Both the position numbers and the translations under genes were made by a program. Positions 46,617 through 51,272 of a DNA stretch of 64,000 bases are shown in pieces. Numbering within the stretch: position 1 is the stretch's first letter; every line of letters starts with the position of its first letter. The stretch is from the NCBI GenBank assembly GCA_025266875.1, contig JALLLT010000060.1, forward strand, positions 62,001 through 126,000. Direction: 5' to 3'. The notes under the pieces were generated by a model, which was not told the origin of the DNA, did no database searches, and was given only the letters and a program-made list of their open reading frames with translations. This DNA comes from Fennellomyces sp. T-0311 (taxonomy: Eukaryota > Mucoromycota > Mucoromycetes > Mucorales > Lichtheimiaceae).

Positions 46617-48651
46617 ATGCCTCCCAATGATGCGCTACCAACATCCATGGACCAATCCTTCGTCAAAAGCGATGCAAAGGCTCACTGGAAACACGTTACA
46701 ATGCAGACCGCAAATGCGTTCGACAATGGTGATCACATGGCTGTTCTTGAGCACTCCTCGCCCATTGTCGACGATCTGCAGAAGAAGCTTGTTTATCTCT
46801 TAAAGATGAGAGTAGTGTCCTGGTCTCATACAGCAAACTTCGCACAAGAGTTAAAAGAAGCGTCTACACTCATAGACTACGCGCCGCGTGATGCAGCAGG
46901 CTACCTGGCGTTGGGGTGTCGTTACGCCGATCAAGGATACCAAACAAGAGCCATCCAGGTTTTCGAGGATGGCCTACGTAATGTCCCCCGTACCAATAGT
47001 CAGTATAATAAACTATCTGCTGCAAAACAGCGTGCGCTATCTCAGCGAAGAATACGGATCGATATCATGGCAAACGTCCCTTACGACGTCATGGGCGCCA
47101 TTACGGAACAAATACCTGACGAGACGTTGCGCAGCTGCTTAATGGTGTCCTCGGTATGGCGTCAAAGACTACTAGCTTATCCTGGCTGCTGGCGTGACAT
47201 TCACATCAAGAAGTTTGAAAGATTCGATTACTTCCACCTACCCAAGGTGTACAACACTCTGCCGCTCATCTGCCATCACATCAGAAAACTTACGTTGCCG
47301 CACTGCCCGCGAGTAACCTTAGCTCTGAAAGCAATGACGACGATGAACTTTTCCAGCATGCAGTCACTTGAAATACCAGATCCACCATGTAAGTTTCTGT
47401 CCACTCTTCGCACTAACGTTGCTAATCAACATTGCTTCTACAGACGGCTACGACTGCCATCACTATGCTTCGCTTTGTCTCAGTTTACCGAACATTGCAG
47501 AATCGCTGACGACATTGGACGTGTCCCTTTTTATCGAGAAGCCAGATATCCTGTCTCAAATCCTCAAGATCTGCCAAAAACTTACAGCACTCAGATACTG
47601 CAATCTGACAGGCACCAATGTTTTCACTCGATTGGCGCTTCCGCACAGAACATCTCTGAGGAAAGTTGTGTTGGAAGCACCGCTTCTCTCTTTCCAGAGC
47701 TCCAACCTTGTTCCCCTCTTCCAATCTTCGCCAGATATTCGGTATATGGTGCTTAGGGGTTGCGGCAGCGACATATACGCGGCTGTCAATGAACACTGTC
47801 CGAACATCAAAATATTCTGGGTTGTCAATTTCCCATACAAACTGAGCAGCTTGGATTATGTGGATTCCAAACGTTACAACGGATTAACAAACTTACACAT
47901 GTATAACCCTACTTCAACATTTGCTATAGCACCGTTAATCAACACGCACTCAACGTCATTGCGAACCTTGTTTATCAGCTTTGCAGATTCTCGTTTCGGC
48001 AGCTCTGAAATAGAATGGACGGGCAACCTCTCATCACTCTCTCTGAATGGTTTGACGGATCTTGGTTTGGAATCTATTCCGGATGCCATTGCAAGCCAAT
48101 TACCCGCTATTATCGCGGAGTGCCCAAAGTTGAAAAGCCTTGGCTTAAACATGCTCGAGGGCACTATTCCCGGACAAACATTTGTTGCTGCATCCAAATT
48201 GAAGCAATTAACTACACTGGAGCTACAAGAAGCATACATGCCGAGATCGGATGAGAAGTTACTATTACAATTTCTACTTGACGCACGACAACCACAAAAA
48301 GGAAAGCCCGGGCTGAAAGTCCTCAGGTTATACGACTGCGGGGATTCAAGTGCTATCGTAGTAGCATGCTCTGCTATTACAACGTTAACCGAGTTATGTA
48401 TCTCTTCTTGGGCCATTCTAAATGATCGTGACGAACGAAGCTTCGCAGCAGGACTCGGACGCTTACCAAATCTTGAGAAACTGGACTTGAGGAATCTTGG
48501 TCTTACGGAACAAAACTTACTGCTCATTAGTGAAAACAAGAGCTTGAAGGAAGTGGAGCTGTACAATATATACGATTTGAGGGAGGAAGAAGTACGAAGC
48601 GCATTCTCGTCAAGTGTCAAGTTGCAATTCGAGGAACGTGAAGTATTTTAG
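46617..48651 (+). CDS. TPR/F-box/LRR protein (Pof3/Dia2-like), intact member of the duplicated pair
   Basis: Two exons, 46617-47388 and 47444-48651, with a 55 nt intron in phase 1, give 659 residues. Residues 25-130 are TPR-like (AFDNGDHMAVLEHSSPIVDD, STLIDYAPRDAAGYLALGCR). Residues 150-196 are an F-box (IMANVPYDVMGAITEQIPDE, then VSSVWRQRLLAYPGCWRDI). The remainder is leucine-rich repeats ending with SLKEVELYNIYDLREEEVR. Position and phase of the intron equal those of the paralog at 22.4-24.4 kb. It is expected to be an SCF ubiquitin-ligase receptor with an unknown target. The pseudogene at 19.9-21.2 kb is its closer relative. A frame 14 codons longer upstream lacks an ATG, so 46617 is taken as the start. 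Confidence 0.83.
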
Positions 48652-49609: not shown

Positions 49610-51272
49610 TTAAACTGCAACACGGGATATCCTACGTTTCTCGCCTACAAGTTTACGGCGCATGTCTTTCTTGGCTCTGCTTGGACGTGTTGGCATGGTT
49701 TCATTGCCAGGCGTGCTGCTGACAGGATTCAATAAATCATCCTTAAAATTATGGAGCAACGACGTGGCAAACGGGCATTGGTCGAGCGATATCAACTGGC
49801 CATCGATCACGCGGGAGCCAAGCACTTGAACATCGATTTGCAAGTACTGTTGCTTGGTTGTATCATTGCTGAGCGTGGCCTGTTCAAGCGGAGAAATGAG
49901 TGACAGCATGGGATGATGGTCGTTCGTGGCGGAATGCAGCGATTCATGGTGCGAGTCGTTGTGGGTGGGAACGACCTGGGAAAACTCGGGCGAGTACAAA
50001 TAGATCTTGGGAGCCGCGGCAGGGACAGCCTTTTGCCAGTGTACGAGCCCGGTCATGTCATCATCGCTATTTGTCCGACTGAGTTTGTCTTTGATCCACG
50101 TTTGGAGCGTCTGCGGTTGAACGGGGTCAATGAGAACGAGGTCCGTGGTCTTTTCTTTGGGTGCAGCATCGAGTGTGGCCCGCTCTGTCTGCTGGTTATA
50201 ATACACATTGGCTCCTCCCTCCAGCGACAACGGCCCGCCGTTACCACCCACGGTGAGCTGATCCACCGTACGCGCTGGCAATGAGAACAACGCAAAGGAA
50301 AATAAGATTATCTAAGATAATGGTGTAACGAACAATGAATTTTTTCTGTTTCCCTCATCGGTGCTTGGGAAAACCCCCTTTACTTACCATAAAGACGACG
50401 CCCGTTGCCCGGTTGTTGATCTGCTTGTTGTTATTGATACCAATGCCCGATGATGCCGGCGAGGATCCTGCTCGTCGCCATAATTCGTTATTTTCTTTTT
50501 CCAAAGCATCCACTCGGGCTTCCAGCGCCGCGACCTTTTGCTTGAGTTGCTCGTTTTCCACAGACAGCGCCGTCTTTTCCTCCTCGAGCGCATTCAAGTG
50601 TTCCCGTTTACGTTTTCGTGATAATAGCGCTGCTGCACGATTCTTAATCAACCGCTCTTGACGTTTGGCAATTGCGGCTGCCTTTTGTGCATCCTGCGGA
50701 TTCTCGTGAGAAGCAGGAGGAGGAGAAGCCTCTTCCATTTTAACAACCGGCGCTGGTGCCGACACAACAGGTTCGGAAGGAGGAGGCGGCGGTAGTGGCT
50801 GTTCAACCGTGACCCTGGCGGCTAATGGTCTCAGGGGTGCAGGCGCTATGGCCGCAGGAGGTTGTGAGTCCCGCTTCTTTCGACCACGTTTCTTTTTTGG
50901 TTGCTCGCTGTCGGATGATGATGAAGAGTACGACCGAGCGGACGAGTCCACGGTGATGGGTTGCTGAAGATACGAAGGAGGAACAAACGATTGAAAGAAT
51001 TCAGGAGGCGGCAAGTAGGCAGGGTGAGGAAGCCAACTTGTATCAAACGCGTTGAGAAGTTGTTGTTCATCTGCAGGATGGGGATGTTGGGATTGATTGT
51101 CAGACGACGTGGTGGAGTATGGTGGTGAAGGTGGATTGTTGTCGAGTGATGTCCAAGGTAAACTGTCGGGTGCTGCCAGGCAATCCGCATTCAAATACGA
51201 CATTAACAAGTCGTCTTGATCTTCTGCGGCATCAGGATCAGGTTTTACGGCTATGGAAGTAGGCGATGCCAT
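49610..51272 (-). CDS. Membrane-tethered bZIP transcription factor (ATF6/CREB3-like architecture)
   Basis: Two exons, 51272-50388 and 50311-49610, join in phase 0 across a 76 nt intron (GTAAGT donor, TTAG acceptor) and give 528 residues. The N-terminal 200 residues are Pro/Ser/Asp-rich with a basic KKKRGRKKR patch. The bZIP spans about 204-264: basic region RQERLIKNRAAALLSRKRKR, then heptad leucines. IKNR is typical of ATF6 and CREB3 families. A 19-residue hydrophobic run, ATGVVFMIILFSFALFSLP (289-307), follows and is split by the intron. The C-terminal 220 residues would be lumenal, with N-x-S/T sites (LSNDT, PGNET) and an RATL sequence that fits the loose site-1-protease RxxL pattern. The role, ER stress or lipid sensing by regulated proteolysis, is inferred from architecture only. 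Confidence 0.72.

What the first reader, a model, noticed from the sequence alone, without database searches (positions are those of the whole stretch)
49610..51272. A fungal bZIP factor with a predicted transmembrane helix and lumenal tail
The joined exons place a 19-residue hydrophobic helix directly after the leucine zipper and about 220 residues beyond it with N-glycosylation-type sites. That order (activation region, bZIP, membrane helix, lumenal domain) is the ATF6/CREB3 layout of animals. Ascomycete stress sensing uses Hac1 instead, and membrane-tethered bZIPs are not a textbook feature of fungi. If real, it suggests a regulated-proteolysis ER or Golgi sensor in this lineage.
Basis: partly seen in the sequence, partly recalled or inferred. 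Interest (0 to 1): 0.75.

Follow-up and report, generated by a model that had tools for sequence, protein, structure and literature searches.

The report
ATF6-like membrane-tethered transcription factor in fungi
A mould carries a gene switch that looks anchored in a cell membrane and resembles the animal stress sensor ATF6, a type of sensor not usually credited to fungi.

Summary
The two-exon model (51272..50388 joined to 50311..49610, minus strand) gives 528 residues, identical to a public model of Fennellomyces sp. T-0311 (Mucorales): bZIP 202-261, one hydrophobic helix near 289-307, about 221 residues beyond. Of the 120 listed hits (itself included), 64 keep the FSF helix motif, 14 have another hydrophobic segment there, and 42 stop at an intron that seems to cut the helix. 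Hits include Mucorales, Umbelopsis, Endogone, Mortierella relatives, Calcarisporiella and Basidiobolus.

The likeness to animals goes beyond layout: the bZIP matches vertebrate ATF6 (39% over 69 columns), crocodile ATF6 finds this gene first in the genome, and 43 columns of the far domain match the ATF6 lumen (score 30.0; maximum of 200 shuffles 20.7; hhalign probability only 15%). The genome has a site-2-protease-like gene, a signal peptide peptidase and Ire1; no site-1 protease was recognised, without a positive control.

Best reading: an ER-tethered ATF6-type factor freed by proteolysis. Location, cleavage and stress response are inferred.

The parts
50388..51272 (-). exon 1 (residues 1-295): N-terminal region, bZIP, first seven residues of the helix
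   Evidence: identical to P0001
50312..50387 (-). 76-base intron, phase 0, cutting the membrane helix after Met295; if retained, the frame adds VSKGGFPKHR and stops (305 residues, no helix)
   Evidence: same position in the paralogue L011 and inferred from protein frames in 42 of 120 hits
49610..50311 (-). exon 2 (residues 296-528 and stop): rest of helix and far (lumenal) domain
50490..50669 (-). bZIP domain, residues 202-261 (PF00170 37.5 bits, cut-off 27.6)
   Evidence: hhalign to ATF6 bZIP E 1.3e-11
50276..50408 (-). predicted membrane helix, residues 289-307, interrupted by the intron
50243..50257 (-). conserved juxtamembrane LTVGG, residues 314-318
   Evidence: LTVGG type in 50 of 56
49799..49921 (-). 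ATF6-like core of the far domain, about residues 426-466 (DHHPMLSLISP...YLQIDVQVLGSRVIDG)

Best explanation
A fungal ATF6-type factor. It is made as a type II membrane protein with the activation region and bZIP in the cytosol and about 220 residues in the ER lumen. The lumenal part keeps it in the ER and senses folding or redox state; on stress it leaves for the Golgi, the lumenal part is shed and the site-2-protease-like enzyme cuts the helix, freeing the bZIP to enter the nucleus and switch on folding or secretory genes. Shown here: gene model, conserved hydrophobic helix and far domain, sequence kinship with vertebrate ATF6 in the bZIP, a weaker but controlled match in a lumenal core, and a site-2-protease-like gene. 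Inferred: topology, ER place, stress trigger, both cuts, nuclear action.
For: Helix and far domain conserved: F299 S300 F301 invariant in 57 aligned sequences; 64 of 120 listed hits with the FSF motif, 14 with another hydrophobic segment. bZIP: 39% over 69 columns to vertebrate ATF6, E 1.3e-11; BLASTP 1e-12. Crocodile ATF6 finds this gene first in the own genome, E 2.1e-5, next 0.025. Far domain against ATF6 lumen: score 30.0, E 0.0018; 200 column-shuffled templates mean 13.5, maximum 20.7; reversed 13.5; real-sequence controls 13.7, 13.7, 17.0; 32 of 54 pairwise alignments, of related sequences, put the QID motif in the same register. One M50 place with HExxH and LDG.
Against: No localisation, cleavage or stress data. 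The hhalign probability for the lumenal core is only 14.8% (the ATF6 set was narrow: named records are mammals and birds, Neff 1.8), the best BLASTP piece there has E 2.5 or so, only 20% of pairwise scores exceed the 95th percentile of shuffles, a global alignment failed, and the fungal profile run on ATF6 lumens gave at best E 0.047, with a shuffled sequence in ninth place. No site-1 protease recognised. The R-x-x-L seen at 339-342 is not kept in the alignment (read by eye). The ATF6 model is too poor to compare folds (mean pLDDT 38.5).
Confidence: 0.65

Rival explanations
1. Membrane-tethered bZIP freed by signal peptide peptidase or another intramembrane protease instead of a site-1/site-2 pair, perhaps for sterol, lipid or hypoxia sensing instead of misfolded protein.
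For: One signal peptide peptidase family place in the genome, best E 6.1e-36; no site-1 protease recognised; type II helix (predicted).
Against: A site-2-protease-like gene is present and the lumenal core resembles ATF6.
Confidence: 0.15
2. Splice switch: the intron that cuts the helix is held back under some condition, giving a short soluble bZIP (305 residues here, 297 in the paralogue) without any proteolysis, as plant bZIP60 reaches a soluble form by another route.
For: Intron at the same Met in gene and paralogue and, by reading frames, in 42 of 120 hits including diverged groups; five of these 42 are NCBI gene models (P0064, P0078, P0089, P0093, P0110).
Against: Old introns are often conserved without regulation; the relatives' DNA was not seen; 37 of the 42 come from other sources (lgn, jgi, ena), presumably called without introns. 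Two further entries seem to read the intron in frame. No Ire1-type CNGNNGN hairpin in gene or spliced coding sequence.
Confidence: 0.1
3. The ATF6 likeness is convergent: an ordinary fungal bZIP that gained a membrane anchor and an unrelated tail.
For: Weak absolute scores of the lumenal match; short far domains in paralogues such as P0071.
Against: bZIP, helix and lumenal core match in the same order, shuffles and other controls stay lower, and the gene is the best genome hit of crocodile ATF6.
Confidence: 0.22

Closest known systems
ATF6 / ATF6B of animals
   Same: Order activation region, bZIP, helix, lumenal domain (recalled layout); RQxRxIKNR...SRKxKxE basic region; P-x-x-S ... P ... QID core in the far domain.
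   Different: Shorter lumenal part (about 220 against about 280 residues); no conserved R-x-x-L near the helix (by eye); no site-1 protease recognised in the genome. ATF6B was not aligned.
CREB3 / OASIS family
   Same: Layout bZIP, helix, lumenal part (recalled).
   Different: Signature NKxSAxxSR (PMC4736632 passage) not met: NRAAALLSR. Lumenal parts were not compared.
Plant bZIP17/28 and bZIP60
   Same: Membrane-tethered bZIPs of the ER stress response (bZIP28: abstract start in the listing; bZIP60: passages of PMC4891664).
   Different: Not aligned here. No Ire1-type hairpin as expected for a bZIP60-like transcript.
Hac1 / Hxl1 of Dikarya
   Same: HAC1 clusters with OASIS-ATF6 in a published tree (PMC4736632 passage).
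   Different: Hac1 is switched by Ire1 splicing (PMC10512342 passage); this gene has a helix and far domain and no such hairpin. No direct alignment was made.

Membership tests
ATF6 family | ATF6-like bZIP | tested here: met
   hhalign E 1.3e-11, 39% over 69 columns; first hit of crocodile ATF6 in own genome
ATF6 family | single helix after the zipper | tested here: met
   hydropathy and AlphaFold2 only, no dedicated predictor
ATF6 family | lumenal core related to that of ATF6 | tested here: met
   43 columns: score 30.0 against at most 20.7 in 200 shuffles and 13.7-17.0 in three real-sequence controls; probability only 14.8%
ATF6 family | whole lumenal domain related to that of ATF6 | tested here: inconclusive
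   outside the core nothing aligned; global mode failed; profile search at best E 0.047
ATF6 family | site-1 cleavage motif R-x-x-L after the helix | tested here: inconclusive
   RATL at 339-342 here, not kept in A1 (by eye); LTVGG type in 50 of 56, R before it in 30
ATF6 family | site-1 protease in the genome | tested here: inconclusive
   42 S8 hits, the 30 with loci inspected for motifs; PF23090 and PF23094 gave nothing, no positive control
ATF6 family | site-2 protease in the genome | tested here: met
   PF02163 E 1.2e-8; HEAGH and FQLDGE
ATF6 family | ER retention, stress-induced cleavage, nuclear entry | not testable with these tools
   needs cells
CREB3/OASIS | NKxSAxxSR basic signature | tested here: not met
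   NRAAALLSR; eight of the nine positions invariant in the 30 sequences of A1; signature
bZIP60/Hac1/XBP1 | Ire1-type hairpins with CNGNNGN loops | tested here: not met
   none with a 5-pair stem in gene or spliced coding sequence; UTRs not scanned; motif recalled

The most novel reading that the evidence does not exclude
Early fungi kept the ATF6 branch of the common ancestor of animals and fungi, and in Mucorales an old intron placed inside the membrane helix lets one gene make either a tethered sensor or, by intron retention, a soluble factor that needs no protease.
Probability: 0.12. Interest if true: 0.8.

Novelty: new member of a known kind. Interest (0 to 1): 0.6.

Why it matters
A gene catalogue of anaerobic fungi gives fungi Ire1-Hac1 and Metazoa in addition ATF6 and PERK (PMC10512342, passages), and a bZIP survey of 49 genomes found an ATF6-specific domain in unicellular holozoans but no such domain in fungal orthologues (PMC4736632, passages). 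An ATF6-type protein with a related lumenal core in early-diverging fungi would move the origin of this branch before the animal-fungus split and imply loss in better-known fungi. It would also give a test system: moulds with Ire1 and an ATF6-like arm side by side.

Tried and rejected
Ire1-type splicing of this transcript: no CNGNNGN hairpin with a 5-pair stem. PDB by sequence: fungal protein and profile gave bZIPs, coiled coils and other chains matched over the zipper, and weak antibody light-chain hits to the far part (E 0.06-0.8), which I take as chance (one search showed 60 of 137); ATF6 gave three CREB chains and one uncharacterised chain matched over residues 304-389, so no solved lumenal domain to compare. 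AlphaFold2 of ATF6 was too poor; the order helix, strand, strand, short helix looks alike in both models but I give it no weight and ran no fold search. Sequon enrichment is slight. A first sorting of the 120 hits (63 / 25 / 32) was redone with wider patterns (64 / 42 / 14). Absence from Dikarya or chytrids cannot be claimed: 120 of 186 hits were listed and only the 7994 best candidates scored. Novelty searches: open-licence PMC papers only, most lists capped (20 of 78, 17 of 17, 20 of 102, 20 of 114, 15 of 1030, 5 of 5, 10 of 29, 15 of 77, 4 of 4). Exact phrases for a fungal ATF6 gave nothing (the four papers held only 'ATF6-like transcription factor'); (ATF6 with Rhizopus, with Mortierella) listed no paper whose title or abstract start reports one; those papers were not opened. 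Two database names already point this way: P0068 of Mucor circinelloides (named after ATF6-mediated unfolded protein response) and P0083 of Choanephora (named ATF-6 beta). On the second check I lowered the main confidence from 0.68 to 0.65, and raised that of the convergence rival from 0.20 to 0.22, because the ATF6 set proved narrower than I had written.

Full report
What is there. On the minus strand, 51272..50388 and 50311..49610 form a two-exon gene with a 76-base intron (GTAAGT...TTAG, phase 0) and a 528-residue product. The identical protein stands in NCBI as BJV82DRAFT_674862 of Fennellomyces sp. T-0311 (genus in Mucorales, Lichtheimiaceae). The Pfam families over their cut-offs are all bZIP models (PF00170, PF07716, PF03131).

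The helix. The best 19-residue hydropathy mean is 2.17 (289-307); 21 of 5000 shuffles of the protein reach it. AlphaFold2 with 57 aligned sequences gives helices 192-269 (bZIP) and 287-304 and, in the far part, helix 361-375, strands 398-401, 430-436, 451-457 and helix 475-489; mean pLDDT is 56.8 and ten-residue means in the far part run from 37 to 77. No dedicated membrane predictor was at hand.

Relatives. The protein search gave 186 hits at E 0.001 or better, 120 listed, the protein itself among them (7994 candidates scored). Named sources include many Mucorales, Umbelopsis, Endogone and Jimgerdemannia, Mortierella relatives (Actinomortierella, Entomortierella, Linnemannia), Calcarisporiella and Basidiobolus (phyla of the last two; other placements recalled). 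In 30 aligned full-length proteins the block (A/T)TG(V/M)VFM(I/M)ILFSFALF(S/T)LP is close to invariant; over 57 sequences F299, S300 and F301 are invariant, as are P436 and D455 in the far domain. The 57 were chosen by me from the 120 as having helix and long tail; one failed the motif or length filter of the scripts, so 56 far domains were used. Of the 120 listed hits, 64 carry the FSF helix motif, 14 another hydrophobic segment in the same place, and 42 are frames that go on with Val right after a Met and then leave the family sequence. Two of the 64 (P0034, P0111) seem to read the intron in frame and so belong in part with the 42, and one of the 64 (P0011) is a model without a proper basic region.

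The intron. Because a donor GT reads as Val, the 42 place an intron directly after the Met inside the helix; that is inference, since their DNA was not seen. Five of the 42 are NCBI models, 37 come from other sources. The intron itself was seen in two genes: this one and the paralogue at C105 (L011; 63-base intron, then IILFSFAIFSLP), whose annotated form P0071 has 39 residues after the helix window. Retention would give 305 and 297 residues without a helix. This may be only an old conserved intron.

Kinship with ATF6. Vertebrate ATF6 records were fetched (155 records, P0121-P0275). bZIP against bZIP: hhalign E 1.3e-11, 39% over 69 columns. Crocodile ATF6 against the own genome hits this gene first (E 2.1e-5; next three 0.025, 0.047, 0.145; 7 candidates). 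Far domain alone, bZIP and helix removed, 56 fungal against 128 of the 155 ATF6 records (27 dropped by the motif and length filter, the crocodile among them by its motif): score 30.0, E 0.0018, probability 14.8%, 43 columns, pairing P-x-LSLISP...YLQIDVQVLGSRVI with RPKMSIVLP...MMQIDCQVMDTRIL. Controls: 200 column-shuffled templates, mean 13.5, maximum 20.7; reversed template 13.5; fungal lumen against ATF6 N-terminus 13.7, fungal N-terminus against ATF6 lumen 13.7, N-terminus against N-terminus 17.0. 32 of 54 pairwise alignments with crocodile ATF6 keep the QID register (two of 56 had no such motif), though only 20% of their scores pass the 95th percentile of shuffles. Against: a global alignment failed, and an earlier run of the fungal profile on 58 of 120 ATF6 lumens mixed with 1160 shuffled and 58 reversed decoys reached only E 0.047; a shuffled sequence stands ninth, and of the 42 rows printed 38 are real, but these are near-copies of each other. 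I take common descent of this core as likely, not proven.

The machinery. The own genome (45.6 Mb, 182 contigs) has one M50 place (E 1.2e-8) with HEAGH and, later, FQLDGE; single pieces fall under the Pfam cut-off (20.1 and 21.6 against 27.2). It has one signal peptide peptidase place (three pieces) and an Ire1-like kinase plus RNase. Of 42 subtilase hits I read motifs around the 30 with loci (some are pieces of one gene); they look like proteinase K, kexin and similar types (names recalled), none like the site-1 protease motif as I recall it (plus strand only, both strands). PF23090 and PF23094 gave nothing, but nothing rang in the controls either. Whether a separate Hac1 gene exists was not tested; the bZIP model alone rings 35 times.

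Literature, passages only. PMC4736632 reports an ATF6-specific domain in unicellular holozoan orthologues, none of these domains in fungal orthologues, and an ATF6-HAC1 link. PMC10512342 gives ATF6 and PERK to Metazoa. PMC3154848 describes ATF6 as type II; its tree legend lists ascomycete and basidiomycete Hac1 and Hxl1 proteins. PMC13294678 (12 of 21 places) surveyed membrane-bound regulators and names a fungal class with NDT80, not a bZIP. PMC4891664 does not mention Mucor or Rhizopus in its main text. I found no paper on a fungal ATF6 in the searches named under Tried and rejected.

Verdict. A real, conserved bZIP family with a predicted membrane anchor in early-diverging fungi, best read as ATF6-type. 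Function, place and cutting remain to be tested.

Noticed in passing
L011:1489-2593 (own genome C105): Paralogue with the same helix and intron position but almost no lumenal domain (P0071, 39 residues after the helix window): an anchored bZIP that seems to have lost the sensor part.
   Followed up: partly
P0067, P0068, P0081, P0084, P0091, P0097, P0113 (relatives): Group in Mucor, Parasitella and Benjaminiella with a diverged helix (such as LLSMMILCYVVFIM) and about 50-80 residues beyond; one source names P0068 after ATF6-mediated unfolded protein response.
   Followed up: no
window 50243-50257 and A2: LTVGG type a few residues after the helix in 50 of 56 relatives, preceded by Arg in 30; possibly a cleavage or recognition site.
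   Followed up: partly
window 49610-49680: Basic C-terminal end (KKDMRRKLVGEKRRISRVAV), kept in many relatives, in a part thought to be lumenal; unexplained.
   Followed up: no
window 47347-48651: Neighbouring 434-residue stop-to-stop frame with leucine-rich repeats of the F-box-associated type (PF24758, 28.9 bits, cut-off 27).
   Followed up: partly
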